DNA from: Lachnospiraceae bacterium
GTDB taxonomy: Bacteria > Bacillota > Clostridia > Lachnospirales > Lachnospiraceae
Length of the DNA: 41,408 bases
Direction: 5' to 3'
NCBI GenBank assembly: GCA_017396145.1
Contig: JAFQMS010000042.1
Location: forward strand, 1-41,408
Numbering within the stretch: the first letter of the stretch is position 1; every line of letters begins with the position of its first letter. The notes under the pieces are model-generated. The model saw only the letters and a program-made list of their open reading frames with translations, was not told the origin of the DNA and made no database searches. Position numbers and translations under genes: made by a program. Below, piece after piece: positions 19,987 through 32,780 of this stretch.

Positions 19987-20093
19987 AGCATTTGTGGATA
20001 AGCATGTAAACAAACTGTCAAATGTTGCCATATAATCAAGAAGAACCAATACAAATATTCTTGAATTTTAGAAGTGAGAAAAGCAATATATAT

Positions 20094-20152
20094 AAAAATA
20101 CCTCTTAAAAACATTTTTTTATAAAAACTATTGTCAAAAGGGGTATTTTTTT
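20094..20152 (+). terminator. Terminator-like long-loop hairpin after the murI operon
   Basis: AAAAATACCTCTT (20094-20106) pairs with AAGGGGTATTTTT (20138-20150) through 13 pairs including one G-U, and the T-run continues to 20152. The loop of 31 bases is long. The 3' arm belongs to a ~70-bp direct repeat whose second copy (21228-21298) lacks the 5' arm. Confidence 0.5.
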
Positions 20153-20192
20153 CATGTAATTGCAATCAGTGATTTTCACTACAAGATATTAT
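20125..20192 (+). repeat. Direct repeat copy 1 (~68 bp, imperfect)
   Basis: This stretch matches 21230-21298 with few changes. Shared blocks are AAAAACTATTG-x-CAAAA, GGGTATTTT, and TAATTGCAATCAGTGATTT followed by CACTACAA and ATTAT. The copy contains the small dyad AGTGA-TTT-TCACT. The two copies bracket a 1.1-kb segment with a truncated gene and an orphan gene. Confidence 0.8.
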
Positions 20193-20254
20193 AGAAGAAT
20201 CGAATTTTATAAAGGAAATGAGTAGAATCATATTACTATAGAAGGTGGAGAATT

Positions 20255-20575
20255 ATGGCGAGATTTACATATGTTATTAGCGATATTCATGGTCAGATTG
20301 ATGCATTTATGAGTATGCTTACACAGATTGATTTTACAGAAAACGATGAAATGTATATATTGGGGGATGTGATTGACAGAGGGCCGAAGTCCATTGAGTG
20401 TATAAAATGGATAATGGCTCGGGATAATATTCTTACATTGTTGGGAAATCATGAGTTAATATTATATGATGGGTATATCAATAATGCACCAGCATTTTAT
20501 CATTCCCTTACTGAAATTAGAGAAACAGTAGATGAATATAGATATAATGTTATAGATGGTAGTGATGACAAATAG
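20255..20575 (+). pseudogene. Truncated PP2A-like metallophosphoesterase
   Basis: A 106-residue frame with the N-terminal half of a serine/threonine-phosphatase-like metallophosphoesterase. SDIHGQ, LGDVIDRGPKS and GNHEL, the first three metal motifs, are intact. The C-terminal half carrying the remaining metal-binding histidines is absent, while family members usually run past 200 residues. The frame stops at a TAG (20573-20575) but continues open for another 30 codons to a second TAG at 20666-20668, ending just before the next gene. The ribosome site GGTGGAG is good, so a short peptide may still be made. It is most likely a decayed or recombined gene; a functional minimal protein cannot be excluded. 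Confidence 0.7.
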
Positions 20576-20678
20576 GGTAAGATGTTAGATGAATTTTGTA
20601 GGGATGTTGCTAAAACTATAGGGGAACAGAGAAACAGGTTAACACCATTTAGATTTAATTTTGGATAGGAGAATTAGT

Positions 20679-21161
20679 ATGTTTACATGGTCAGATACAA
20701 TAAAAAAATTTCCAACAATATTTAAGCCAGTATTAAAAAAGTATAATTTAAAGTATAAAATTATTAGTGAGCGGGAAGTAATATTTTATGGGAATGGTTA
20801 TGTGATTGCTGGAGTTTTGGAGAGAGAGGGTTTTTCGATTTCTTACCTTAGAAGAAAAGATGAGAATACATATTATAATTATATGATTGATACTTATTTT
20901 GCGATTAAGATTGATGACCAAGACAGAGATGATGTTCGTGTGACTAATGAGAAAAATAAATGGGTTAGGAAAATGATATACACTGCTAATTCCCTGCTTA
21001 GCAAATGGGATAATATGCTTTCTGGTAATCTAGATTGGATTGAAGATTTTAAGAAATCCAGATGGTATTATGTGCTTGAAAGACCATTTCAGGAGTGCTC
21101 GTCTTTTGATATGAATTATAAAAGAGCATTTGATGAAATGAAGTCTATTAAAAAGATTTAA
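20679..21161 (+). CDS. Hypothetical cytosolic protein
   Basis: A 160-residue soluble protein that I do not recognise. It is rich in Lys, Tyr, Trp and Asp, with no signal peptide or membrane span. The N-terminal third has beta-strand character (KYKIISEREVIFYGNGY), and the C-terminal half looks helical with several Trp residues (KWVRKM, KWDNML, WIEDFKK). The start is the ATG at 20679, eight bases after AGGAGA; a TTG at 20661 lies upstream of that site. It sits inside the direct-repeat-bounded segment beside a truncated phosphatase gene, so it may have arrived with that segment. Size and context would fit an immunity-type or accessory protein, but nothing in the sequence proves this. Confidence 0.65.
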   Translation: MFTWSDTIKKFPTIFKPVLKKYNLKYKIISEREVIFYGNGYVIAGVLEREGFSISYLRRKDENTYYNYMIDTYFAIKIDDQDRDDVRVTNEKNKWVRKMIYTANSLLSKWDNMLSGNLDWIEDFKKSRWYYVLERPFQECSSFDMNYKRAFDEMKSIKKI

Positions 21162-21229
21162 GGCTGATTTTTAGATATTTAAGGTGAAAATGGAACATTT
21201 TTTGTAAAAAAATCAACTTAATTTAAAAA

Positions 21230-21298
21230 AAACTATTGCCAAAAAGGGTATTTTATTCTTATAATTGCAATCAGTGATTTGCACTACAAATTATTATT
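21230..21298 (+). repeat. Direct repeat copy 2 (~69 bp, imperfect)
   Basis: The second copy of the 20125-20192 element, ending 23 bp before the aspartate kinase ATG. Here the dyad reads AGTG-ATTTG-CACT. The copy lacks the upstream ATACC arm that makes copy 1 a terminator. Confidence 0.8.
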
Positions 21299-21320
21299 AA
21301 AGAATATAGAGGAATAAGCG

Positions 21321-22640
21321 ATGGTTAAAGTTGTAAAGTTTGGTGGCAGTTCTTTAGCAAGTGCTGCACAGTTTAAGAAAGTTGCTGATATTATACATGC
21401 AGAGGATTCAAGAAGATATATTGTACCTTCTGCTCCTGGTAAAAGAGATTCGGCTGATACAAAGGTAACAGACATGTTATATGAATGTTATGGAGCAGCT
21501 GCAAAGGGAAAAGCATACAAGCATTTATTGCAGAGCATCAAGGAAAGATATTATGAGATAATCAATACATTGAAGTTAGATCTTTCTTTGGAGAAAGAAT
21601 TTGATGTGATTGAGGCTTGTTTTATTGGTAAGGCAGGAAGAGACTATGCAGCATCTAGAGGAGAATATTTAAATGGTATTATTCTTGCTAATTATCTTGG
21701 ATATGAGTTTATAGATGCAGCTGAAGTTATTTTCTTTGATGATAATGGTAAATTTGATGCTAAGAGAACTAATAAGGTGTTAGCAGAAAGATTAAGTGAT
21801 ATAGAAAAGGCAGTCATTCCTGGTTTTTATGGTTCCATGCCAAATGATACAATTAAAACATTTTCCCGTGGTGGTTCAGATGTAACAGGTTCAATTGTAG
21901 CAAGAGCTGTAAAGGCTGATTTATATGAGAACTGGACAGATGTATCTGGTTTCTTGGTGGGAGATCCAAGAATCATTAATGATCCAAAGGTTATCACAAC
22001 AATTACTTATAAGGAACTTAGAGAACTTTCTTATATGGGTGCAGGCGTTCTTCACGAAGATGCTATATTCCCTGTAAGAAAAGAAGGTATTCCAATTAAC
22101 ATTAAGAATACAAACAAACCTGAAGATGCAGGTACAATGATTGTTGAAAGTACATCTAAGAAGCCTGAATATACTATTACAGGTATTGCAGGTAAAAAGG
22201 GATTTACAGCGGTAAGTATTGAAAAGGATATGATGAACTCAGAACTTGGTTTTTGTAGAAAAGTTCTTGAAGAGTTCGAAAAGAATGGTATTTCTATTGA
22301 ACATATGCCATCAGGAATCGATACAATGACTGTTATTGTTCATCAGGAAGAATTTGAAGAAAAGGAACAGGAGATTCTTGCAGGAATTCATAGAAATGTA
22401 AGCCCGGATTCTATAGATATTGAGTCTGATATTGCTCTTATAGCAGTAGTTGGACGTGGAATGAAGTCTAATCGTGGTACAGCAGGACGTATATTTGCAG
22501 CCCTTGCACATGCACATGTTAATGTTAAGATGATTGACCAGGGTTCAAGTGAACTTAATATAATTGTAGGCGTATCTGCAGATGACTTTGATAAGGCTAT
22601 GAATGCTATTTATGATATTTTTGTAAAAGTACAGTTATAA
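21321..22640 (+). CDS. lysC: Aspartate kinase
   Basis: A 439-residue aspartokinase catalysing the first step of the lysine, threonine and methionine pathway. The catalytic domain (about 1-280) begins with VVKFGGSSLA and contains SRGGSDVTGS and the TDVSGF-like WTDVSGFLVGDPR region. Two C-terminal ACT domains follow (about 300-370 and 375-435; IALIAVVGRGM starts the second), so allosteric feedback by lysine or threonine is expected. Length and domain order suit the monofunctional clostridial enzyme. I see no lysine riboswitch or T-box in the 160 bp upstream, only the repeat element that may carry its expression signals. The ribosome site GAGGAA is adequate. The gene symbol is for the function; paralogues could exist. 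Confidence 0.93.
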   Translation: MVKVVKFGGSSLASAAQFKKVADIIHAEDSRRYIVPSAPGKRDSADTKVTDMLYECYGAAAKGKAYKHLLQSIKERYYEIINTLKLDLSLEKEFDVIEACFIGKAGRDYAASRGEYLNGIILANYLGYEFIDAAEVIFFDDNGKFDAKRTNKVLAERLSDIEKAVIPGFYGSMPNDTIKTFSRGGSDVTGSIVARAVKADLYENWTDVSGFLVGDPRIINDPKVITTITYKELRELSYMGAGVLHEDAIFPVRKEGIPINIKNTNKPEDAGTMIVESTSKKPEYTITGIAGKKGFTAVSIEKDMMNSELGFCRKVLEEFEKNGISIEHMPSGIDTMTVIVHQEEFEEKEQEILAGIHRNVSPDSIDIESDIALIAVVGRGMKSNRGTAGRIFAALAHAHVNVKMIDQGSSELNIIVGVSADDFDKAMNAIYDIFVKVQL

Positions 22641-22686
22641 GAAACTTAGAACACTGTATAAACTATAGAGTGATAAATTAAGTGAA

Positions 22687-22799
22687 TATAATTATAAATG
22701 TACATAGAGGCATCGTATACAAGTGTTTGATTCTCATCTTACTGGCTTGTCCAGAAAATGGAGACTTGGGCATGAGTATAGGATGCCTATTTGTATGTA
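22687..22799 (+). ncRNA. Candidate structured leader RNA or small RNA with -10 box
   Basis: A TATAAT at 22687-22692 is followed, at the expected start distance, by a long hairpin. TACATA (22701-22706) pairs with TATGTA (22794-22799), and AGGCATCGTATAC (22708-22720) pairs with GTATAGGATGCCT (22776-22788) with one mismatch. The 55-base interior contains CTCAT/ATGAG and a TCCA-GAAAA-TGGA stem-loop. The element lies in the 263-bp gap between aspartate kinase and the gene at 22904. It matches no riboswitch consensus I know. It could be the 5' leader of the downstream gene or a free small RNA. Confidence 0.4.
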
Positions 22800-22903
22800 A
22801 ATTAATGGTTTTCTAATGTAAATTTTTGTGATAGAAATATAATAGATAGAGTAGTTTAGTAAAATTTTACGATAAATAAGGAAGATTAAAGGAGAAAAAG
22901 GTT

Positions 22904-23515
22904 ATGTTAAAAGAAAAATTACCTAAGATAGGGATTGTTGTAGGAATTATAGTTGTAGTGGCAGCGATATTATATGTTAAATTCTATATTTTAGATGCTA
23001 CAGATGTCTATATTGCAGAATATTATGAAGGAATTAGATATGGTATGGATAAGAAGAGTGCAGGTAATATTTTAGTAAGCGACGGCCATACAGAAGTTAA
23101 ATCAGGCATGGTATATAAAGTTACTGATTTTGGCGGAGTTGAAGGTGCTAATGGTGTGGTTGCGATAACAGGAGCAGATGATAAGGTTGAGAATGTATTG
23201 TGTTTTTTTGAGGCCGGTGACAAGGAACAAGAGATTGATGCCAAATTACTAGATAAACTTGCTAAGGGATGTATTAAAGAATTAGATAAAATGATAGATA
23301 AAAAGATTGATGAAGATGAACATTTAGAAATACTAAAAACAGAGGGTGGGGATTATGATGAAAGCAAAGCTAAAGGCTTGATAGAAGGACAAACCATATG
23401 GTTAGGTGAGAAGTCATGTATTACTATTACTTATATTGAATCTACAAGTCTTACCATAGATTATGAAGATATTAATTCGGAAAGGAGCCAGTATTATCTT
23501 TCGGTGGATAAATAA
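22904..23515 (+). CDS. Hypothetical single-span membrane protein
   Basis: A 203-residue protein with one N-terminal membrane span (about 9-30: IGIVVGIIVVVAAILYVKF) and an extracytoplasmic domain rich in Asp, Glu and Lys. The first part of the outer domain (YYEGIRYGMDKKSAGNIL, then DGHTEVKSG) resembles the small beta-rich 'opening' motifs of SmpA/BLIP-like lipoproteins, but the similarity is weak and unconfirmed. There is no lipobox, so it is a signal anchor rather than a lipoprotein. The ribosome site AAAGGAG is strong. The 5' leader holds the hairpin described at 22687-22799. Function is unknown. Confidence 0.7.
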   Translation: MLKEKLPKIGIVVGIIVVVAAILYVKFYILDATDVYIAEYYEGIRYGMDKKSAGNILVSDGHTEVKSGMVYKVTDFGGVEGANGVVAITGADDKVENVLCFFEAGDKEQEIDAKLLDKLAKGCIKELDKMIDKKIDEDEHLEILKTEGGDYDESKAKGLIEGQTIWLGEKSCITITYIESTSLTIDYEDINSERSQYYLSVDK

Positions 23516-23617
23516 TATTAGAAGATAAGAAGTAGTCGATGAATTGCAATATGGGGGTGCATTAATTATGGTTAAAGTGAAGATTATGGCAAGAATGATT
23601 ATGCGTCTGGAGAAATT

Positions 23618-23866
23618 TTGTGTAATGTACTTGGGGATGAGATAGAGAAAGAAAAAGTAACAAAAACTGATCCAATGAAATTTGTTATTATTATAGTGCT
23701 TGTAGTTGTTGGAATTATGAGTATTGCATCACCTAGTGCTGTGTGGTATCTAGAATATGGATGGCGATATAAGGACGCACAGCCATCTGATGAAGCAATT
23801 GCAATGAATCGTTTTGTGGGAATAATTGCGATTATAGCGGCTGTTGCTATTCTTATTTTTGCATAA
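23618..23866 (+). CDS. Small two-span membrane protein (DUF6199-like), possibly frameshifted
   Basis: An 82-residue protein with two spans (about 21-40 and 65-82). A short loop with W-Y-L-E-Y-GW-R-YKDAQPS and a following Arg resembles the DUF6199 group of small membrane proteins (family recalled, not searched). The TTG at 23618 has GGAG five bases upstream and may be used. However, the same frame is open back to 23576 and reads like protein (DYGKNDYASGEIL), while the well-placed ATG at 23568 behind GGGGGTG is in another frame and stops after 25 codons at 23645. A single-base change near 23571-23578 would join them, so the gene may carry a frameshift or the short frame may be a coupled upstream peptide. 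Confidence 0.6.
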   Translation: MCNVLGDEIEKEKVTKTDPMKFVIIIVLVVVGIMSIASPSAVWYLEYGWRYKDAQPSDEAIAMNRFVGIIAIIAAVAILIFA

Positions 23867-23895
23867 AGGTAGTGCCTATAGAAAGGAAAAAACTT

Positions 23896-24777
23896 ATGTT
23901 TGGGAAGGAATTCTTTAAAAGATATACTTTTTTATTAGTATTATTAATTATTGTTATTGGGATGTCTAGTAGTGTAATTACTAGTCTTGCGCAGGAGCGT
24001 TTTCATGAACCTATAGAGAATTATTATGGTGCCGGAGCAATTTGCAAATTTGTGACATCAGTGATACCATTATTTTTGATGGTTAAATGGGGATATTTAA
24101 AGAAGGTGAGTTTAAGTAAGGTGCTGTTAGGATTTGCAATGGGAGCATTTACTTTTATATTCTTCTTACCTAATATTCTTATTTTAACAATGGTAAATGA
24201 AACCTTTTTCAATGTGAATTATAATGGTGTCTTAGCGGTAGCATTATTATCCTTAGGTATAGGCTTGATAGAAGAATCAGCGATTCGAGGAGTGTTTTTA
24301 CCATTCTTATGCGAGAAATGGCATAAGAAAAAGCATGTATATGTAAAAGCAGCCATAGCAAGCTCATTATTATTTGCAGTGATACACCTTAGTGGTAGCG
24401 TAGGGTATTTTGTTAAATACAAGACATTGCCTATGGAATACTTTCTAGGTAATATGTATCAGGTGTACTATACATTTTGCTATGGAATATTTATGGCAGC
24501 GGTTGTAATAAAAACAAAGAATATATGGGGCGTTGTGTTCTGGCATGGTGTTTGTGACTTCGTAGCATTTTTAAAAAGTGTTGTTATTGATGAGATATTC
24601 TTGACATACTTGTATGGTAGTAATTATCTGACATTTGCAAGATTTCTTGAAAAGCATGAGATTCTAGCTGGAGTTAAATATGCACCTCAGGTGATAGAGG
24701 GATGCATCAATCTTGCGTTGGTAGTTGTGGGGCTTGTGATAATAATTAAGGAAGAGAAGAAGATGGAAGAGATATAA
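23896..24777 (+). CDS. CPBP-family intramembrane metalloprotease
   Basis: A 293-residue, seven- to eight-span membrane protein with the full CPBP (Abi/Rce1-like) signature: Glu126-Glu127-x-x-x-Arg131, FAVIH with His164, and HGVCD with His217 and Asp221. These residues form the membrane-embedded metal site of prenyl-protein and bacteriocin-related endopeptidases. Bacterial members take part in bacteriocin maturation or self-immunity and in anti-sigma or receptor processing; no bacteriocin gene is evident nearby. The start is the ATG at 23896 behind AAAGGA; an in-frame GTG at 23872 lies upstream of that site. It is 29 bp after the small membrane protein gene, so both may be one transcript. Confidence 0.88.
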   Translation: MFGKEFFKRYTFLLVLLIIVIGMSSSVITSLAQERFHEPIENYYGAGAICKFVTSVIPLFLMVKWGYLKKVSLSKVLLGFAMGAFTFIFFLPNILILTMVNETFFNVNYNGVLAVALLSLGIGLIEESAIRGVFLPFLCEKWHKKKHVYVKAAIASSLLFAVIHLSGSVGYFVKYKTLPMEYFLGNMYQVYYTFCYGIFMAAVVIKTKNIWGVVFWHGVCDFVAFLKSVVIDEIFLTYLYGSNYLTFARFLEKHEILAGVKYAPQVIEGCINLALVVVGLVIIIKEEKKMEEI

Positions 24778-24801
24778 TCAGATTAATAAAGTGATAATGT
24801 A

Positions 24802-24830
24802 TTGCTATTGTGCGTACGAATTGATATAAT
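24802..24830 (+). promoter_or_regulatory. Promoter of the toxin-antitoxin operon
   Basis: TTGCTA (24802-24807), a 17-bp spacer and TATAAT (24825-24830), about 40 bp before the antitoxin ATG. A CGTACG palindrome (24813-24818) sits in the middle of the spacer, where an autoregulating antitoxin could bind. Confidence 0.65.
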
Positions 24831-24869
24831 TATAATAAATAAAAGTGTTTTGTAAAGGGAGGGTTAATT

Positions 24870-25178
24870 ATGGCAACAAAAACAGCTAATTTATATGCAA
24901 GGATAGAACCAGAACTAAAGGAACAAGCGGAAAATATACTTTCTACATTAGGGATTCCTGCTTCTAATGCAATTACAATGTTTTATAAGCAGATTATTTT
25001 GAATAGAGGGCTTCCTTTTGATGTAAAAATACCTGTAACTATACCTTTAGATGTATCTAGAATTACAGAAAATGAATTAAGCACAGAACTTGAGAAGGGG
25101 TATGAGGATATAATTGCTGGAAGGACAAAGCCTGCAACACAAGTGTTTGCTGATATCCGAAATGAATACAAGATATGA
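24870..25178 (+). CDS. RelB/DinJ-family antitoxin
   Basis: A 102-residue antitoxin. The N-terminal ribbon-helix-helix part (NLYARIEPELKEQAENIL, then LGIPASNAITMFYKQI) is the RelB/DinJ DNA-binding dimer, which normally represses its own operon. The C-terminal tail (about 60-102) would wrap the toxin. RelB/DinJ proteins neutralise RelE/ParE-fold toxins. Its stop overlaps the toxin start by four bases (ATGA at 25175-25178), the usual sign of translational coupling. The ribosome site GGGAGG is strong, so more antitoxin than toxin should be made. Confidence 0.92.
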   Translation: MATKTANLYARIEPELKEQAENILSTLGIPASNAITMFYKQIILNRGLPFDVKIPVTIPLDVSRITENELSTELEKGYEDIIAGRTKPATQVFADIRNEYKI

Positions 25179-25501
25179 TAAGTTATGAAGTGAGAATGTC
25201 AAATCAAGCGAATTATGATATTAAAAGTATATATGAATATATTGCCTTTGAATTATTATCACCAGAAAATGCAGTTGGTCAGGTTATTAGATTAGAAGAG
25301 AGTATACTTAATTTGGACACCTTGCCTGAAAGATTCAAAGAATACGATAAAGAACCATGGAAAAGCCGAGGACTACGAATAATGCCAGTTGATAATTACT
25401 TAGTCTTTTATATACCAGATAAAGAAAAGAGACAAGTAGTCGTGATACGAGTAATGTATGCGGGAAGAAATGTTGATATTGAATTAAATAAGAATGCATA
25501 G
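25175..25501 (+). CDS. RelE/ParE-family toxin
   Basis: A 108-residue toxin of the RelE/ParE superfamily. Two N-terminal helices (MSNQANYDIKSIYEYIA and the segment around 35-52) are followed by a beta-sheet containing GLRIMPVDNYLVFYI and VIRVMYAGRNV. The Y-(x)-V/I-FY-I and RVMYAGR signatures fit the broad family. RelE members cut mRNA in the ribosomal A site, ParE members poison gyrase; I cannot decide between them because the catalytic set is not clear by eye. The gene overlaps the antitoxin and is followed after only 11 bp by the translation-GTPase/NYN fusion gene. Confidence 0.9.
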   Translation: MISYEVRMSNQANYDIKSIYEYIAFELLSPENAVGQVIRLEESILNLDTLPERFKEYDKEPWKSRGLRIMPVDNYLVFYIPDKEKRQVVVIRVMYAGRNVDIELNKNA

Positions 25502-25512
25502 TAGGGTGAAAT

Positions 25513-28140
25513 ATGAACACGAACAAAAAATGCTGTATTGGCATTCTGGCCCATGTTGACGCAGGGAAGACTACGCTTTGTGAAAGTATGTTATATACTG
25601 CAAAGGCGATTAGACAGTTAGGGCGTGTTGACAAGGGAAATGCCTTTTTAGATACAGATGAAACAGAAAAGAAAAGAGGAATAACTATATATTCTAAGAC
25701 TGCCACATTTACATATGGCGGTCTTAATGTTGTGCTTTTAGATACTCCCGGGCATGCTGATTTTTCAGCAGAGATGGAGAGAACCTTAAGTGTGCTTGAT
25801 TACTGTATTCTTGTTATAGACGGCTCTCAAAGATTTAGTGAATACACCAAATTACAGTTTAATTTATTGAAAGAGTATAAGATTCCGGTGTTTGTCTTTG
25901 TTAATAAATGGGACAGGGCTACTAAGGATAAGGATGAATTCATAGGGGAACTTAAAGAGTTTTTTAAGGATGAATTTGTGTGCTTTGATGATGAAGATAA
26001 TATAGATATGGAGTCTATAGCGGCTACGGACGAAGAGTTTCTAACACAGTATTTGGAAAATGACACACTAGGTGTTGAATCGTTGCAGGATGCAATATCT
26101 AAATTGCTAATATATCCATGCTACTTTGGAAGTGCCTTAAAGGTAGAAGGGATAGACACATTTTTAAATGGAATAGAAAAATATACTACTAATAAAGAGT
26201 ACTGTGCAGAGCCAATGGCAAGGGTATATAAAATCTTACATGACCCAGAGGGAAACAGACTCACATTTGCTAAGATAATTGGTGGAAACTTTAAGATTAG
26301 GGATGAGATTAATGGTGAAAAGATTAACAGAATAAGAATATATTCAGGAGAGAAGTATGAGAATGTAACAGAGGCTGTAGCAGGGGATATATGTGCTTTT
26401 GTAGGATTAAATGATACGTACGCAGGACAGGGAATAGGTGATGTGGAGGAAGCAAAAGCACCAGTTATTTTACCTGTTATGACATACACCATTGAACCTG
26501 TGACCAAGATAGATATGCAGGATTTGTATCAAAAGTTTAAGAAAATGTGGGATGAGGAACCACAGATGATGCTTACCTTTGATGAACATACTAAGGAAAT
26601 CAGAGTGTCTATAATGGGTGAAATTCAGCGTCAGATTATCAAGGAACAGATTAAGAAAAGATATGATGTAGATGTGGAATTTGGCAAAGGAACAATAGCT
26701 TATAAAGAGACAATTAGTGAGCCTAGCTATGGAGTGGGACATTTTGAACCACTAAGGCACTACGGTGAGGTTCATGTGTTAATAGAGCCTGGGAAGGCAG
26801 GCAGTGGGATAGAGGTTGAGTCTGATTTGTCAGAGGATTTGCTGGATAAAAACTGGCAAAGGCTTATACTTAACAACTTGAAATTCTATAGACATAAAGG
26901 AGTGTTAACAGGCAGTCAGTTAACAGATGTAAAGCTTACACTTAAAGCAGGTAAGGCTCACAATAAGCACAGTCAGACTACGGATTTTCGTCAATCAGTA
27001 ATTAGGGCGGTAAGACATGGGCTTATGAAAGGGAAAAGTAAGCTTTTAGAGCCTTATTACACATATACCTTAAGTGTGCCACAATCGGGTATGGGTAAGG
27101 CAATGACAGATATGGAGAACAGACACGCATCAGTTGCTATTGATGTGATGGGAACATCTGATGATGATATATGTGTGCTTAAAGGAAAGGGACCTGTAAG
27201 TACACTGTGGGATTATGCCAAGGATATTTGGGCGTACACTAAGGGAAAGGGAGCCATGAGTCTAGAATATGCCGGATATGGAGAATGCCATAATGAAGAA
27301 GAGGTTATTATGAATATGGCATATAATCCGCTGGCTGATATGGCTAATCCACCAGGCTCGGTATTTTGTGCCCATGGAGCAGGATTTCATGTGGAATGGG
27401 ACAGAGTTGAAGATTATATGCATTTGGAAAATGCTATGAAGGTGAGACCAGTATCTTTGGAAGAAATGGTTGGGGATAATGATAGACCTGATAATAGAGA
27501 AAGTCTTTCAGACAGGTTAGAAGGACTTGGTACAGATGAGATAGACGCTATACTAAATAAGACATTTAATGCTAACAAAAAAAGTAGTGATAGTAAGAAT
27601 ATAAATTCCTTTAAAAAGACCAAGGTTGTATATGATGGTGGAAAATCTGGTGGAACAGCCACTAAGAATAAGGCCAAAAACAGTTATCTTTTGGTTGACG
27701 GATATAATATTGTTCATGCATGGGAGGAAACTAAGGATTTAGTTTCAGTATCCTTTGATGGAGCAAGAGACAGACTTTTAGAGATTCTTAGCGATTATGC
27801 TGGAACAGGCAAGGATAACATTATAGTTGTATTTGATGCCTATAAGACAAGCAATGCCAAAGAAAGCATTCTCACCTATCATAACATTAATGTGGTATAT
27901 ACAAAGCAGGCGCAGACAGCGGATGCGTATATTGAGAAGTTTACTCACGAAAACGCGAATAAATATAATATAACAGTTGCTACCTCAGATGGAGTTGAGC
28001 AGATGATTATTCGTGGAGCCGGATGTAATCTAGTGTCCGCAAGAGATTTTGAGAAAATGGTCAAAGATAGAAGGCAAAGACTGAAGGAGCAGGGCTTTTA
28101 TTCTGATGGGGAGAGTGTAGGAAATAGGGTTGAAATATAA
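25513..28140 (+). CDS. Tet(M)/EF-G-like translation GTPase fused to a Rae1/YacP-type NYN domain
   Basis: An 875-residue fusion. Residues 1 to about 655 form a translation GTPase of the ribosomal-protection type: P-loop AHVDAGKTT (about 12-20), RGIT in switch I, DTPGH, NKWD (in place of the usual NKxD) and the later EF-G-like domains. A Lys/Ser/Asn-rich linker (about 670-720) leads to a NYN/PIN-like domain (about 722-875) with LVDGYNI (Asp729), VFDAY, the TADAYIE acidic motif and ATSDGVEQ. These are the marks of YacP/Rae1. Rae1 of Bacillus cuts mRNA in the ribosomal A site, the site where Tet(M)-like GTPases bind. The start ATG lies 11 bp after the toxin stop, with ribosome site AGGGTGA. A plain tetracycline-resistance role is unlikely. 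Confidence 0.9.
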   Translation: MNTNKKCCIGILAHVDAGKTTLCESMLYTAKAIRQLGRVDKGNAFLDTDETEKKRGITIYSKTATFTYGGLNVVLLDTPGHADFSAEMERTLSVLDYCILVIDGSQRFSEYTKLQFNLLKEYKIPVFVFVNKWDRATKDKDEFIGELKEFFKDEFVCFDDEDNIDMESIAATDEEFLTQYLENDTLGVESLQDAISKLLIYPCYFGSALKVEGIDTFLNGIEKYTTNKEYCAEPMARVYKILHDPEGNRLTFAKIIGGNFKIRDEINGEKINRIRIYSGEKYENVTEAVAGDICAFVGLNDTYAGQGIGDVEEAKAPVILPVMTYTIEPVTKIDMQDLYQKFKKMWDEEPQMMLTFDEHTKEIRVSIMGEIQRQIIKEQIKKRYDVDVEFGKGTIAYKETISEPSYGVGHFEPLRHYGEVHVLIEPGKAGSGIEVESDLSEDLLDKNWQRLILNNLKFYRHKGVLTGSQLTDVKLTLKAGKAHNKHSQTTDFRQSVIRAVRHGLMKGKSKLLEPYYTYTLSVPQSGMGKAMTDMENRHASVAIDVMGTSDDDICVLKGKGPVSTLWDYAKDIWAYTKGKGAMSLEYAGYGECHNEEEVIMNMAYNPLADMANPPGSVFCAHGAGFHVEWDRVEDYMHLENAMKVRPVSLEEMVGDNDRPDNRESLSDRLEGLGTDEIDAILNKTFNANKKSSDSKNINSFKKTKVVYDGGKSGGTATKNKAKNSYLLVDGYNIVHAWEETKDLVSVSFDGARDRLLEILSDYAGTGKDNIIVVFDAYKTSNAKESILTYHNINVVYTKQAQTADAYIEKFTHENANKYNITVATSDGVEQMIIRGAGCNLVSARDFEKMVKDRRQRLKEQGFYSDGESVGNRVEI

Positions 28141-28163
28141 AAGGTTGTTTACACAAACTATGA

Positions 28164-28192
28164 TTGACAAAATATTGGAAATATGATACAAA
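28164..28192 (+). promoter_or_regulatory. Promoter candidate for the gene at 28249
   Basis: A perfect TTGACA (28164-28169), 17-bp spacer, then TACAAA (28187-28192; four of six matches). It lies in the 108-bp gap after the GTPase-NYN gene. Confidence 0.5.
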
Positions 28193-28248
28193 AAATGTGC
28201 ATTATTCAAAATTTAGTGGAACGTCATTAACAGGAGCAAAGTGGTATT

Positions 28249-28704
28249 ATGGAACATGGTCGTATTAATAAAAAAAGATTAATAGTATTTATTATAGTAT
28301 TATTTGTTATTCTAATTTCAGTTGTGGTATATAGAACTCTAAATAAAAAAGAAGAAGTATCTTTTGATGAAAATGATAAACTTTTTTTTGATATGTTTGT
28401 AAATCAATTTGAACCAGAGGAATATGAGTTTTATTCGCTTGATGCATATTATTTAGAAGATACAAGAGAGTATTATTACAATGCTAAATATAAATGTTAC
28501 TCATCCATAGATGATAAATGGTACGAAATAGATGAAGTGACCTATGGTGCACTTAACAAGTTTTATAATAGTTATTGTTTGTCGTGGGATGATTTAAATG
28601 GCTTTGAAGAAGTTGATAAAGAGTTTCAGCGAGCAAAAAAAGAAGGAGTTCACAAGTCATATTCAAGTAAAGATATTGAAAAACTTATTGAAGAGGTTAA
28701 TTAG
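28249..28704 (+). CDS. Hypothetical single-span membrane protein
   Basis: A 151-residue protein with one N-terminal span (about 10-29: RLIVFIIVLFVILISVVVY) and an acidic, aromatic-rich outer domain (about 35-151) containing many Tyr, Asp and Glu residues. A C-terminal stretch SSKDIEKLIEEV looks like an amphipathic helix. I recognise no family. It has its own promoter candidate (28164-28192); the ribosome site before the ATG is weak (AGGAGC, about 17 bases away). It may be unrelated to the translation GTPase upstream. Confidence 0.65.
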   Translation: MEHGRINKKRLIVFIIVLFVILISVVVYRTLNKKEEVSFDENDKLFFDMFVNQFEPEEYEFYSLDAYYLEDTREYYYNAKYKCYSSIDDKWYEIDEVTYGALNKFYNSYCLSWDDLNGFEEVDKEFQRAKKEGVHKSYSSKDIEKLIEEVN

Positions 28705-28760
28705 ATAGAAAGGTGCTCTGCATAGTGTGTTATTATTAGTTATTTTGTTGAAAATATAAT

Positions 28761-28779
28761 CATTATAAGTCTTATAATG
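28761..28779 (+). repeat. Perfect operator-like palindrome
   Basis: CATTATAAG and CTTATAATG flank a single central T, a perfect 19-base dyad in the 240-bp gap before the TM1266-like gene. It is about 80 bp upstream of the likely -35 box (28860-28865), so it could be an activator site or the remains of an older promoter region. Confidence 0.5.
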
Positions 28780-28859
28780 GGGAGTGGGTATCTTTTATCT
28801 TGATATTGGCAAGCTTATTACCGGTAGTAATTCTGTTAAAAAAAGAACCAAGTGAGTTA

Positions 28860-28888
28860 ATGACAAAATATGATATATAGAGTATAAT
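28860..28888 (+). promoter_or_regulatory. Promoter of the TM1266-like regulator gene
   Basis: ATGACA (28860-28865; five of six matches to TTGACA), 17-bp spacer, TATAAT (28883-28888). A second TATAAT at 28908-28913 has no matching -35. Confidence 0.6.
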
Positions 28889-28944
28889 TATAAATTATAA
28901 ATGTTGTTATAATAGAATTGTAGCATATAGGAAAGGTGGTAATT

Positions 28945-29190
28945 ATGGAAAACAGAATAGCTTTATTATCAATAATTGTAGAGGACAGAGAAAATGTGGA
29001 TGTGCTTAATGCGTTATTACATGAATTCTCAGATGACATTATCGGAAGAATGGGACTTCCATATAAGGAAAAAAATATTTCATTAATCAGTATAGCCATG
29101 GATGCTCCTGAGGATGTAATAAGCAATCTTTCGGGTAAAATTGGCCAAATTGAAGGCGTAACTGTCAAGGCTGCATATTCTAAACACTAA
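28945..29190 (+). CDS. TM1266-family iron-only hydrogenase system putative regulator
   Basis: An 81-residue ferredoxin-fold/ACT-like protein matching the TM1266 family: RIALLSIIVED at the N-terminus, a central LLHEFSDDIIGRMGLPY and the closing SGKIGQIEGVTVKAAYSK. In many anaerobes this gene sits beside hydE, hydF or hydG (Fe-Fe hydrogenase maturation) and is thought to be a regulator. No maturase genes are present in this window, so the gene is separated from them here. The start is the ATG at 28945 behind GAAAGGTGG; a GTG at 28936 overlaps that site. A strong terminator follows at 29248-29286. Confidence 0.85.
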   Translation: MENRIALLSIIVEDRENVDVLNALLHEFSDDIIGRMGLPYKEKNISLISIAMDAPEDVISNLSGKIGQIEGVTVKAAYSKH

Positions 29191-29247
29191 TTATTAAGTT
29201 AATTATGTTTTTTTAAAACTAAATTGTTTTGGCTAATGTGACGATAT

Positions 29248-29286
29248 AACTGATAGAGATACGGACATCTCTATCAGTTTTTTTTG
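29248..29286 (+). terminator. Strong intrinsic terminator
   Basis: A perfect 13-bp stem AACTGATAGAGAT/ATCTCTATCAGTT (29248-29260 and 29267-29279) with loop ACGGAC is followed by a T-run to 29285. It ends the TM1266-like gene. Confidence 0.93.
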
Positions 29287-29334
29287 CAAGGATGCGCAAA
29301 ATGTGAATTATTATGCTGTTTTTTCGCGTAGGCG

Positions 29335-29348
29335 CTCCGGAACGGAGG
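29335..29348 (+). promoter_or_regulatory. Small hairpin masking the ribosome site of the calcium-loop protein
   Basis: CTCCG (29335-29339), loop GAA and CGGAG (29343-29347) form a GC stem whose 3' arm is the GGAGG ribosome site for the ATG at 29354. The leader around it is unusually GC-rich for this window (CGCGTAGGCGC). Translation may need the stem to open. Confidence 0.5.
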
Positions 29349-29353
29349 TACAT

Positions 29354-30580
29354 ATGAAAATAAATAATTCAGCAATTAATCTATCTTCTGAACGTAACTT
29401 TTATAGTTATACTTCAGTTGAGTCGGAATCAATTGAACAACGAGCTGATGCTGCGGCACAACTTGATTTGTCAGGTGAAGGTAAGTCCATGCTAGAACAA
29501 CTTAAGGATTTTAAGGAAAATGAAAAAGTTCAGGCACAGGAAAGACAAAAACAAAACAATCAAAATTCTTTTATTAGTCTTAAGGATATGTTAGAGAGTC
29601 AAAAGGCTAATAATGAAGAACAATTTGAACTTCCTCAAGGGGAAGATTATAGAATTATGCTTATGAGAAAACTCATAGAGTCCTTTAGGAGAATGCATGG
29701 TAAAAAGGTACCAAAACTAGATAAAGAAGGTTCTGGTATGGAGAATAAGAATAATGCATTAAAAGTACAGATGTCAAGTAATAGTTCATTTTCATTAAAG
29801 GCGTTTTCAGGAAGGGTTTCTATTGGTAGCACATCCGGTGCAATTGGTACTGGCAGTACAGCAAATGCAGTTTCACAAGGTGGAGCGGTAAATAATCTTG
29901 GAGGCAATCAGTGGACAAGAACTACTGTGGTAAGTACTTTTGAACTAGAGGTTGAAAATACTGCTTTTGAGGGCACAGGTTATGTTAGAACTGCAGATGG
30001 AAGGGATATTGCATTCAATGTTACTGTTGAAATGAGCAGGGCGTTTTGCCAGACTACTGAGAGTAAGTTGGTAGAAGACTATTTTGTGAGAGTTTGTGAT
30101 CCGTTAGTTATTAATGTAGATAGTGTAAATCCAAGTGTTACTGACCAAAAGTTTATGTTTGATTTGGATAGTGATGGGAAAGAAGAAAACGTATCATTTG
30201 CCGGAAAAGGAAGTGGATTCTTGGCTCTTGATAAGAATGGGGATGGAATTATTAATGATGGAAGTGAGTTGTTTGGAACTAAGTCAGGAGACGGCTTTGC
30301 AGACCTTTCAGTATATGATGAAGATGGTAACGGATTCATTGATGATGGTGATGAAGTATTTAAGCACCTTAAAGTGTGGATGCTAGACGACGAAGGTAAT
30401 AAAAAACTAATTAGTGCTAAAGAACTTGGTATTGGTGCTATGTATCTTGGCAGCGCCGATACTCAGTTTTCTCTTAATGATAGTGAGCAAAATACCAATG
30501 CTTATGTAAGAAAAACCGGTATATATCTCAAAGAAGATGGTGGTGTCGGTACAATGAATCATATTGATTTAGTGTTGTAA
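29354..30580 (+). CDS. Protein with C-terminal calcium-binding (EF-hand/dockerin-like) loops, no signal peptide
   Basis: A 408-residue protein. The N-terminal ~190 residues are Gln/Asn/Ser-rich and probably partly coiled or disordered. A middle part is beta-rich. The C-terminal ~140 residues hold Asp-rich calcium-type loops: DLDSDGKEENV, DKNGDGIINDG and DEDGNGFIDDGD, with GSELFGT and GFADLSVYD between them. This C-terminal module is common in gut Clostridia proteins of unknown function. No signal peptide or lipobox is visible, so it is cytoplasmic or exported without a classical signal. The start is the ATG at 29354 behind GGAGG; a GTG at 29303 lies upstream of that site. The gene stands alone behind a terminator. 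Confidence 0.8.
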   Translation: MKINNSAINLSSERNFYSYTSVESESIEQRADAAAQLDLSGEGKSMLEQLKDFKENEKVQAQERQKQNNQNSFISLKDMLESQKANNEEQFELPQGEDYRIMLMRKLIESFRRMHGKKVPKLDKEGSGMENKNNALKVQMSSNSSFSLKAFSGRVSIGSTSGAIGTGSTANAVSQGGAVNNLGGNQWTRTTVVSTFELEVENTAFEGTGYVRTADGRDIAFNVTVEMSRAFCQTTESKLVEDYFVRVCDPLVINVDSVNPSVTDQKFMFDLDSDGKEENVSFAGKGSGFLALDKNGDGIINDGSELFGTKSGDGFADLSVYDEDGNGFIDDGDEVFKHLKVWMLDDEGNKKLISAKELGIGAMYLGSADTQFSLNDSEQNTNAYVRKTGIYLKEDGGVGTMNHIDLVL

Positions 30581-30725
30581 GTTGTTAATATGTTTTAAGT
30601 TATTGGTATTGTTAAATGTGCAATAGTGTTATGATAAATCATACTACTTTGACTTGTGGTAATTGTGGTTTCGTGATAATATGGGAATATAACCTTTATT
30701 AAAGCAACTACACGGAGGAAGCAAA

Positions 30726-32780
30726 GTGAGATTTGTTATTTTTTCTGACAACGATATAGAGATAACCGGAGTGCTTAAGAAAGAGTTACTTAAGCACTCT
30801 TTTAATGTTGAGATAATATATGAAAAAGATAGTAATATTCATGATGTCGTGGATTATGATGGAAAAAAATCTGCGGCTGAGATGAAAGATGAAGAAATAG
30901 TGGAGAAGGAGAGCCATATTGATAAAGATACATTTGTTGTACTTATTAGTAGACTTACTTCTGGTTTTTGTTCACCTTTTATTAAAGGGATAATGGATGA
31001 ACTTTGTAATAATGAAAGGCCGGCAGGAATTGCAGCAGCTGTATGTTATGAAAAAAAGAATGCGTATGGACATGATATTTTCCTTGGAGCGCTATCTTCC
31101 TATTGTGAGCATAATGACATACCGTTTTCAGGAATGTTTGCAATAGATAATAATCTAATAACAGATATTTCGGAGAATGGGGTATGTAGTGACATTAAGA
31201 ATTTTGCCAATAGTCTGGTTTTATTTGTTAAGCAAAACAAAACTATGCTACAGGATTTTGAATGGTACTTGCCATGCGATAAAAGCCACTGGCAAAGGGT
31301 TGCAATTCAGGCAAAAGCCTTAAGAAAGATGGGAATTGACTGTGTGTGGCTTCCACCTGCTTATAAAGGTGCTCATGGCGTTGAAGATACAGGATATGCA
31401 GTATATGATTTGTATGACCTTGGAGAGTTCAACCAAAAGGGTAGTGTGGCAACCAAATATGGAACTAGAAAAGAATACTTGAAAGCCATAAAGGCACTTC
31501 AAAACGAAGGTATAGAGGTGTTGGCTGATATTGTATTAGGACATAGAATGGGCGCAGACGAGAAGGAACGAATATTTGCATATTGTAATGATGCGTATAA
31601 TCGCAATAACGAAGTAACTAATGATAAGCAAAAGATTACAGTATGGACTAAGTTCACATTTCCTGGTCGTAATGGCAAATATTCCGATTTCAAATGGGAT
31701 TGGACACATTTTCATGGGACGGATTATGATGCTAAGAATGATGAGAATGGTATATATAGATTCATAGGTAAGGAATGGGACAGTGATGTTGACAACGAGT
31801 TTGGAAACTATGATTATTTAATGGGCGTTGACCTTGATATGAGTGATGATGAGGTTGTAAGTGAACTTAAGAGATGGGGCGAGTGGTATTACGAGACTAC
31901 AGGTGTAGACGGATTTAGAATAGATGCAGTAAAGCATATTGATTTTTCGTTCTTTAAAAATTGGCTTACTCATCTTAGAACTACATTTAACAAGAAATTC
32001 TTTGCAGTAGGTGAGTATTGGAATTCAGAACTTCCTATACTTGTAAACTATGTGGAAAAAACAGAGGGTGTATTGTCTATATTTGATGTACCATTACATT
32101 TTAATATGCATCATGCTTCTACAAGTTTTGGATATTATGATATGAGAAATATTCTAAAGAATACAGTGTTAAGTTACAGACCAGATCTTGCGGTGACATT
32201 TGTGGATAATCATGATACTCAGCCGGGACAAGCCCTAGAGTCATATGTGCTTGATTGGTTTAAACCTCATGCATATAGTCTTATTTTGCTTAGAGATTTG
32301 GGATATCCTTGTGTATTTTATGGGGATTTATATGGTATTCCCCATGATAATATTCCAAAGTTATCTTGTCTTGAGACTTTGATGTTAATAAGAAAAAACT
32401 ACGCATATGGTAAACTTCATGATTACTTTGATGACCCTAAGATTGTAGGATTTACAAGAGAGGGGATTGATGAAATTGAAGAGTCAGGATTGGCGGTTTT
32501 AATGACTGTTGAAAAGGGCGGAAGCAAAAAAATGTATATTGGCAAACATTTTTCTGGACTTTTCTTCAAATGTGTTGTCGGAAGTATTGACAATGAGGTG
32601 AAAATAGACGAAAATGGATATGGAATGTTTAATGTGGAAGACGGAAAAACAAGTGTTTATATTTTAAAAGAGGGTCAGCCTGTTGGTGTAAGAAATTATG
32701 AATATAATGATGAGAATGAAGTAAGTGCATTTGAAGATGCACTACTACGAGAGGTTGATAAGAATGAATGTGATGAATAG
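30726..32780 (+). CDS. Cytoplasmic GH13 alpha-amylase with flavodoxin-like N-terminal domain
   Basis: A 684-residue protein. From about residue 178 (FEWYLP) it matches the cytoplasmic bacterial alpha-amylase type (GH13 subfamily 5-like). The catalytic residues are all present: nucleophile Asp400 in GFRIDAVKH, acid/base Glu430 in VGEYWN and Asp497 in VDNHDTQPG. WLPPAYKG and YDLYDLGEF are typical of the subfamily. The first ~175 residues are extra and look like a flavodoxin or FMN-reductase fold (MRFVIFSD, then VVLISRLTSGFCSPFIKG). There is no signal peptide, so it should act on intracellular glycogen or imported maltodextrins. Start is GTG behind GGAGG (30715-30719). The 3' end overlaps the next gene by 17 bases. 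Confidence 0.9.
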   Translation: MRFVIFSDNDIEITGVLKKELLKHSFNVEIIYEKDSNIHDVVDYDGKKSAAEMKDEEIVEKESHIDKDTFVVLISRLTSGFCSPFIKGIMDELCNNERPAGIAAAVCYEKKNAYGHDIFLGALSSYCEHNDIPFSGMFAIDNNLITDISENGVCSDIKNFANSLVLFVKQNKTMLQDFEWYLPCDKSHWQRVAIQAKALRKMGIDCVWLPPAYKGAHGVEDTGYAVYDLYDLGEFNQKGSVATKYGTRKEYLKAIKALQNEGIEVLADIVLGHRMGADEKERIFAYCNDAYNRNNEVTNDKQKITVWTKFTFPGRNGKYSDFKWDWTHFHGTDYDAKNDENGIYRFIGKEWDSDVDNEFGNYDYLMGVDLDMSDDEVVSELKRWGEWYYETTGVDGFRIDAVKHIDFSFFKNWLTHLRTTFNKKFFAVGEYWNSELPILVNYVEKTEGVLSIFDVPLHFNMHHASTSFGYYDMRNILKNTVLSYRPDLAVTFVDNHDTQPGQALESYVLDWFKPHAYSLILLRDLGYPCVFYGDLYGIPHDNIPKLSCLETLMLIRKNYAYGKLHDYFDDPKIVGFTREGIDEIEESGLAVLMTVEKGGSKKMYIGKHFSGLFFKCVVGSIDNEVKIDENGYGMFNVEDGKTSVYILKEGQPVGVRNYEYNDENEVSAFEDALLREVDKNECDE

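What the first reader, a model, noticed from the sequence alone, without database searches (positions are those of the whole stretch)
25513..28140. Translation GTPase fused to a Rae1/YacP-type ribonuclease domain
One 875-codon frame joins a Tet(M)/EF-G-like GTPase to a NYN domain resembling Rae1/YacP. Rae1 enters the ribosomal A site and cuts mRNA there; Tet(M)-like GTPases enter the same region from the factor-binding site. The fusion suggests one protein that clears or inspects the A site and cleaves mRNA in a GTP-dependent way, i.e. a dedicated ribosome-rescue or translation-arrest factor. Motif content is seen; the mechanism is inferred.
Basis: partly seen in the sequence, partly recalled or inferred. 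Interest (0 to 1): 0.8.

Follow-up and report, generated by a model that had tools for sequence, protein, structure and literature searches.

The report
Translation GTPase fused to ribosomal RNase
One gene joins a ribosome-binding GTPase to an mRNA-cutting enzyme; the pairing is real, common in related bacteria and was reported once in 2015, but I found no test of what it does, and relatives are labelled as tetracycline resistance although they do not look like resistance proteins.

Summary
ORF 25513-28140 (875 aa) joins a complete EF-G/Tet-type GTPase (residues 8-595) to a Rae1/YacP NYN RNase domain (726-860); the active-site acids are kept in 127-128 of 128 aligned fusions. It is not an artefact: 80 of 80 named loci found with a fusion profile are fused, and the layout predominates in its family, Lachnospiraceae by inference. 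It is not new: a 2015 survey reported Tet+YacP-NYN fusions in ten clostridial species (PMC4342817). What I add: the GTPase is a clade separate from true Tet proteins; it scores far below the Tet cut-offs that two Tet controls pass; its domain IV tip loops are conserved but unlike those of Tet(M) or EF-G; the fusion arose about once and usually holds the genome's only YacP domain. In the family the GTPase is in 175 of 180 genomes with YacP and 0 of 20 without. Most likely it is a ribosome-targeted A-site mRNA endonuclease with GTP-gated access, acting on stalled ribosomes.

The parts
25513..28140 (+). Fused GTPase-NYN gene, 875 codons plus stop; GGGTGA Shine-Dalgarno-like stretch just upstream
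25534..26187 (+). G domain (residues 8-225): P-loop K19, T58 (RGIT), DTPGH 77-81, NKWD 131-134
26218..26424 (+). EF-G domain II (residues 236-304)
26473..26688 (+). EF-G domain III (residues 321-392)
26689..27033 (+). EF-G domain IV (residues 393-507), the region best conserved with the window protein (mean identity 59% over 127 fusions)
26722..26784 (+). Domain IV loop I (residues 404-424), family motif GxGHFEPLRHYAEVH
26944..26994 (+). Domain IV loop III (residues 478-494), family motif GRAHxKHTEGGDFR; here GKAHNKHSQTTDFR
27040..27297 (+). EF-G domain V (residues 510-595)
27313..27408 (+). Conserved extension after domain V (residues 601-632, consensus NPxGSVFCxHGAGFxVxW), also in 19 of 20 unfused rows
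27409..27678 (+). Poorly conserved linker (residues 633-722); W629 to L726 spans 73-152 residues in 128 sequences, 97 here
27688..28092 (+). NYN_YacP (Rae1-type) RNase domain (residues 726-860) with D729, D775, D804, E808, D826

Best explanation
A ribosome-targeted endoribonuclease of mRNA with GTP-gated access to the A site. Proposed order of events: (1) the GTPase half, built like EF-G, docks in the factor-binding site of a ribosome whose A site stays empty, that is, a stalled one; (2) its domain IV tip, which carries the family's own conserved loops, probes or clears the decoding site; (3) GTP hydrolysis lets domain IV withdraw; (4) the NYN domain, held nearby by a flexible linker of about 90 residues, enters the A site and cuts the mRNA as free Rae1 does in B. 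subtilis, leaving a truncated message that tmRNA can rescue. Shown here: the architecture, intact catalytic residues in both halves, about one fusion origin, use of what is usually the genome's only YacP domain, co-occurrence of the GTPase with YacP, and lack of the Tet-type tip. From papers: B. subtilis Rae1 can attack mRNA in the ribosomal A site. Inferred: that the GTPase targets and times the cut, and steps 1 to 4.
For: Complete EF-G domain set and YacP NYN domain; Rae1 acids align and are kept in 127-128 of 128 aligned fusions. Of 180 family genomes with a YacP match, 175 show a single match, so the cell's Rae1 is mostly the fused one. Separate Rae1 genes: 6 of 9 loci checked have a SpoU-type rRNA methylase gene directly upstream, like yacO-rae1 in B. 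subtilis (PMC6613710 passages). Family co-occurrence: GTPase in 175 of 180 YacP-positive and 0 of 20 YacP-negative genomes (Fisher). Where the GTPase is a separate gene, YacP is elsewhere in the genome in 21 of 22 genomes (10 of 11 genera) at order level, 2 of 2 at phylum level and 6 of 6 in the family. Domain IV is the region best conserved with the window protein and has its own tip motifs. Rae1 as an A-site nuclease, and A-site cleavage as preparation for tmRNA: PMC12320835 passages.
Against: Rae1 works without such a GTPase in B. subtilis as far as the passages say, and YacP is common without the GTPase: by subtraction, 77 of 107 GTPase-less genomes of the order have it, and 5 of 180 in the family. 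Loss of both halves together is partly trivial once they are fused; the separate-gene test is weak (Fisher p = 0.012, not corrected for phylogeny; six of the 22 genomes are of one genus). One separate-gene genome, G211 (77% complete), shows no YacP. The window's genus has drifted in the tip: GKAHNKHSQTTDFR here, and the same-genus copy L060 lacks the conserved His483, so this member may be a relaxed one. No gene-neighbour signal.
Confidence: 0.5

Rival explanations
1. A ribosomal protection protein against tetracycline or another ribosome drug, with the RNase as an accessory part. This is the reading of the 2015 survey and of automatic annotation.
For: Placed in the Tet subfamily by PMC4342817, which suggested a new resistance mechanism involving RNase activity. 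With a 7-sequence GTPase profile the nearest solved structures are TetM and TetO, then EF-G; with the single sequence, EF-G comes just ahead of TetO and TetM. Plasmid-record annotation of the 15 listed relatives TetM/TetW/TetO/TetS-family (two read in full), and the other a translation factor GTPase.
Against: Score 398 against a Tet cut-off of 775, and 374-425 in four relatives, while two true Tet controls pass with 876 and 819. Separate clade, SH-aLRT 99. The Tet(M) tip (PPNPFWA and YYSPVSTP), present in 5 of 5 rows that I had picked as Tet, is absent from all 58 rows of this family. True Tet-type genes occur beside it in the same genomes, for example in G005 and G358.
Confidence: 0.15
2. A ribosome-assembly or stable-RNA processing factor: the GTPase checks new subunits and the NYN domain trims rRNA or tRNA.
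For: The NYN domain was earlier proposed to act in rRNA and tRNA maturation (stated in PMC4342817); separate YacP genes lie next to a SpoU rRNA methylase gene in 6 of 9 loci.
Against: The experimentally studied YacP protein, Rae1, is described as an A-site mRNA endonuclease (PMC12320835, PMC6613710 and PMC8266666 passages). Both halves are absent from 20 of 200 family genomes, 15 of these at least 90% complete by the table, so the function is dispensable.
Confidence: 0.17
3. The two halves work independently: two ribosome-associated proteins that became one chain without functional coupling.
For: The linker is long and poorly conserved; unfused members keep the same GTPase tip; two unfused sequences nest in the fused clade, so splitting seems tolerated.
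Against: Fusions were found in 8 family groups of the phylum sample, the GTPase is almost never found without YacP, and both active sites are kept together. One strongly diverged copy, G178 (L206), lacks several motifs of both halves.
Confidence: 0.13

Closest known systems
Tet-subfamily proteins with a YacP-like NYN domain in ten clostridial species (Atkinson 2015, PMC4342817)
   Same: Same two parts and same bacterial group; very probably the same family.
   Different: The paper treats them as Tet resistance proteins and suggests RNase-based resistance. Here they form a clade outside the true Tet proteins, and the RNase half is now known as Rae1. I saw passages only; its supplementary list could not be read, so identity of members is inferred.
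Rae1/YacP of Bacillus subtilis (5MQ8, 5MQ9)
   Same: NYN domain by sequence and the same five acids aligned; the fused NYN domains sit among separate YacP proteins of the same phylum in a tree (which did not include B. subtilis).
   Different: The solved Rae1 chain is a separate protein of 181 residues with no GTPase.
Tet(M)/Tet(O) ribosomal protection proteins
   Same: Same EF-G-type domain layout; among the closest solved structures.
   Different: Domain IV tip loops, curated score cut-offs and tree position all differ.
EF-G
   Same: Same domains; tip His483 aligns with a histidine of the EF-G tip, present in 4 of 4 EF-G rows.
   Different: Different tip motif, well under the EF-G cut-off (276 against 659), separate clade.

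Membership tests
Tet ribosomal protection proteins | Score over the NCBIfam Tet cut-off (NF012153, 775 bits) | tested here: not met
   398 bits for the window; 409, 411, 425 and 374 for four relatives; two true Tet controls score 876 and 819
Tet ribosomal protection proteins | Domain IV tip of the Tet(M) type (YYSPVSTP, PPNPFWA); that the tip loops dislodge the drug is stated in PMC4342817 | tested here: not met
   0 of 58 family rows; 5 of 5 Tet rows have it (Tet(M) itself)
Tet ribosomal protection proteins | Falls in the Tet clade | tested here: not met
   58-row family clade SH-aLRT 99, 7-row clade with the five Tet rows 100 (quick tree without bootstrap)
Tet ribosomal protection proteins | Confers tetracycline resistance | not testable with these tools
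   needs a phenotype assay
Rae1/YacP RNases | NYN_YacP domain over the Pfam cut-off | tested here: met
   150 bits against 24.6
Rae1/YacP RNases | Acidic active-site residues of Rae1 (their catalytic role is recalled) | tested here: met
   D729, D775 and D804 in 128 of 128; E808 and D826 in 127 of 128, the other row a gap
Rae1/YacP RNases | Ribosome-dependent A-site mRNA cleavage | not testable with these tools
   biochemical assay needed
Translational GTPases, EF-G/Tet type | G motifs and domains II-V | tested here: met
EF-G proper | Score over the TIGR00484 cut-off and place in the EF-G clade | tested here: not met
   276 bits against 659; outside the four-row EF-G clade used as outgroup
Tet+YacP fusions of Clostridiales (PMC4342817) | Tet/EF-G-type GTPase with an additional YacP-like NYN domain, in Clostridiales | tested here: met
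   the paper's own sequence list was not readable

The most novel reading that the evidence does not exclude
A translational GTPase with its own built-in A-site mRNA nuclease: one protein that recognises a stalled ribosome through an EF-G-like probe, spends GTP to withdraw, then cuts the message in the emptied A site. It would be a dedicated, GTP-timed bacterial rescue or quality-control factor, widespread in Clostridia and currently mislabelled as tetracycline resistance.
Probability: 0.4. Interest if true: 0.8.

Novelty: new member of a known kind. Interest (0 to 1): 0.5.

Why it matters
If the GTPase times the cut, this family offers a single-protein system for asking how A-site mRNA cleavage is restricted to stalled ribosomes, an open point for Rae1, whose recognition is still poorly defined (recalled). 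Independently of mechanism, record annotation of 15 listed plasmid relatives tetracycline resistance proteins, although the five family members that I scored fail the curated Tet cut-off and all 58 aligned rows lack the Tet tip. Surveys of resistance genes in Clostridia that rely on such names may count a translation factor as resistance.

Tried and rejected
Operon logic with the RelB/RelE-like pair just upstream (24870-25501): at 127 fused loci, within the flanks held, blastp found no relative of either protein; a later phmmer found one marginal hit (E 7e-4, a 65-aa ORF in L082); rejected as a shared system. Conserved gene neighbours: the commonest neighbour family is at 15 of 127 loci; nothing useful. 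RNA families near the gene: none over Rfam thresholds in 20000-31000. Defence system: no PADLOC match. Metal site in the C-terminal extension (C592, C619, H621): C619 is kept in 120 and H621 in 111 of 128, so not pursued. The first genome-contig scan with the single protein found nothing; the alignment scan worked.

Papers: three papers named in reference lists as dealing with Rae1 itself and one by its DOI were not held; one of them, on Rae1 distribution (2018), may already mention the fusion. Searches for later work on the fusion (listings capped at 10-20 papers, open-licence PubMed Central only) showed the 2015 survey as the only listed paper with YacP, NYN and Tet words together; PMC11780869 holds YacP and tetM, but there tetM is a reporter gene (passages).

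How the counts were read (by hand from the tables). Family, 200 genomes: 'GTPase present' means profile A2 E below 1e-180; the 15 YacP-positive genomes under that line had a second look with profile A1 (10 present, one of them strongly diverged; 5 absent: G007, G016, G020, G068, G128), and the 20 YacP-negative genomes had the same second look (0 present; best matches are EF-G-like frames). Of the 175, 169 are fused (several broken by a contig end or a frame break, one lacking domains IV-V) and 6 separate (G024, G029, G054, G059, G099 with a broken GTPase frame, G161). Order, 196 genomes: 63 fused, 22 separate (2 seen in part), 4 undetermined (G661 and G576 end at a contig end; G646 and G651 seen in part; the last two have YacP), 107 none. 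The 77 of 107 is by subtraction from 163 YacP-positive genomes. The Fisher tests used these numbers.

Changed on checking: the number of single-match genomes (175, not 174), the number of YacP-negative genomes at least 90% complete (15, not 14), and the layout of seven genomes, settled.

Full report
The gene. The 875-codon frame at 25513-28140 is real. It holds a full set of EF-G-type domains (G, II, III, IV, V; residues 8-595), a short conserved extension (about 601-632), a variable linker, and a YacP-type NYN RNase domain (726-860). The NYN part aligns with B. subtilis Rae1/YacP (5MQ8, 5MQ9). Over 128 fused sequences (window plus 127 loci), D729, N732, D775 and D804 are invariant and E808 and D826 are in 127 with one gap; P-loop K19 is in 127 with one gap, T58, D77 and D134 in 128. 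Both active sites are therefore probably under selection.

Prior knowledge. Atkinson 2015 (PMC4342817; passages) states that Tet proteins from ten clostridial species have acquired a YacP-like NYN RNase domain, and proposes rRNA RNase ability and a possible new resistance mechanism. That predates the 2017 Rae1 work, cited in papers I could see but not itself held. Later papers describe Rae1 as able to attack mRNA in the ribosomal A site and A-site cleavage as preparation for tmRNA rescue (PMC12320835, passages; PMC6613710, passages; PMC8266666, passages). The architecture is therefore not new. I found no experimental study of the fused protein in the open-licence library (searches, with capped listings).

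Distribution. PF05991 matches 180 of 200 genomes of the window's family, 175 of them once; 19 of the listed rows have frames under 800 aa, the other listed rows being of fusion length (listing capped). Read together, both halves are present in 175 genomes: 169 fused, some of them broken by a contig end or a frame break, and 6 as separate genes. The family is probably Lachnospiraceae: contig G011:C84 and record JAILQS010000012.1, a Lachnospiraceae MAG, have the same length of 28,694 bases. Across the phylum 155 of 299 genomes have YacP, mostly as separate proteins of about 170-200 aa in the listed rows, with 17 fusions besides the window, in 8 family groups. A scan of named genomes returned 80 loci (capped), all fused; its search patterns came from a fusion alignment, so this does not measure frequency. 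By protein search, 2 of 1,204 matching plasmid records and 2 of 109 matching phage records cover at least 80% of the query.

The GTPase half is not a Tet protein. It scores 398 bits against a Tet cut-off of 775, and four relatives 374-425, whereas two true Tet controls score 876 and 819. In a 76-row tree the family (38 fused, 20 unfused rows) is one clade with SH-aLRT 99; the five Tet rows sit with two further proteins in another clade with support 100; a third group of seven unfused GTPases is separate (quick method, no bootstrap). The tip of domain IV differs from both Tet and EF-G: the family has GxGHFEPLRHYAEVH in loop I and GRAHxKHTEGGDFR in loop III, with some divergent members; Tet rows have PPNPFWA and YYSPVSTP; EF-G rows have GGRGQYGH-type and GSYHDVDSSE-type loops. 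Unfused members share the family tip, so the tip seems older than the fusion. Against this, the solved structures nearest to the GTPase are TetM and TetO by profile and EF-G, closely followed by TetO and TetM, by single sequence.

How the two halves came together. On the GTPase tree the fused rows form one group of 40 (38 fused plus two unfused, L185 and the L. salivarius plasmid copy L223; support 100), with the other unfused rows branching earlier. The NYN tree, on only 163 columns and with weaker support, needs two changes of layout at the fewest, of which well-supported branches force one. One fusion with a few later splits is the simplest reading.

Dependence of the GTPase on YacP. In the family, the GTPase ortholog is present in 175 of 180 YacP-positive and in 0 of 20 YacP-negative genomes (Fisher p about 3e-23). 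Fused genes are lost as a unit, so most of that signal is expected. The cleaner test is in genomes where the two are separate genes: YacP is present elsewhere in 21 of 22 at order level (10 of 11 genera), against 77 of 107 genomes with no GTPase ortholog (Fisher p = 0.012, not corrected for phylogeny). The exception, G211, is 77% complete. At phylum level 20 of 20 GTPase genomes have YacP, 2 of them as separate genes. The reverse does not hold: YacP is often found without the GTPase.

Mechanism. Rae1 alone can cut in the A site. An EF-G-type factor places domain IV in the same place (recalled). Both cannot be there at once, so the sensible order is GTPase first, then withdrawal, then cleavage by the tethered NYN domain. 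The linker (W629 to L726: 73-152 residues, median 91) looks long enough for such a swing, but no structure was available to test geometry. The GTPase could supply ribosome targeting, selection for an empty A site, or clearing of an obstacle; the data do not separate these.

Caveats for this member. The window copy and its only same-genus relative seen (L060) depart from the family tip motif: the window reads GKAHNKHSQTTDFR and L060 lacks His483. The genome is 58.5% complete, so absence of a second YacP in it is uncertain.

Verdict.

Noticed in passing
window 24870-25501: A RelB/DinJ-like antitoxin (61 bits, over cut-off) and a RelE/ParE-like protein (26.3 bits on TIGR02385, just under its cut-off 27.9; Pfam ParE_toxin met) lie in tandem, ending 11 bases before the fused gene. 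RelE-type toxins also cut mRNA in the A site (PMC12320835 passage), but the pair was not found at other fused loci.
   Followed up: partly
L197-L200, L205, L214, L217: A further clade of unfused Tet/EF-G-like GTPases with a different tip (PKPCWA and HTHPLDF-type loops), neither Tet nor the fusion family; one member scores 602 on the Tet model, under the cut-off 775.
   Followed up: no
L206 (G178): A 928-aa fused protein on a very long branch in which simple motif searches found no AHxDAGKT, RGIT or TAD, and which lacks the family tip: a decayed or repurposed copy in a genome listed as 99% complete.
   Followed up: no
G135:C43:27866-29824: A 690-aa frame in which the match skips profile positions 401-657 (about domains IV-V) between the GTPase start and the NYN domain.
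   Followed up: no
L223 (Ligilactobacillus salivarius UCC118 plasmid pMP118): An unfused member on a megaplasmid, near a 30S ribosomal protein S14 gene and labelled as tetracycline resistance; it nests inside the fused clade.
   Followed up: partly
phage records MT835514 and MT835563 (human faecal, unannotated): Each holds a stretch covering 96-97% of the fused protein at 43-45% identity; they may be bacterial contigs filed as phage.
   Followed up: no
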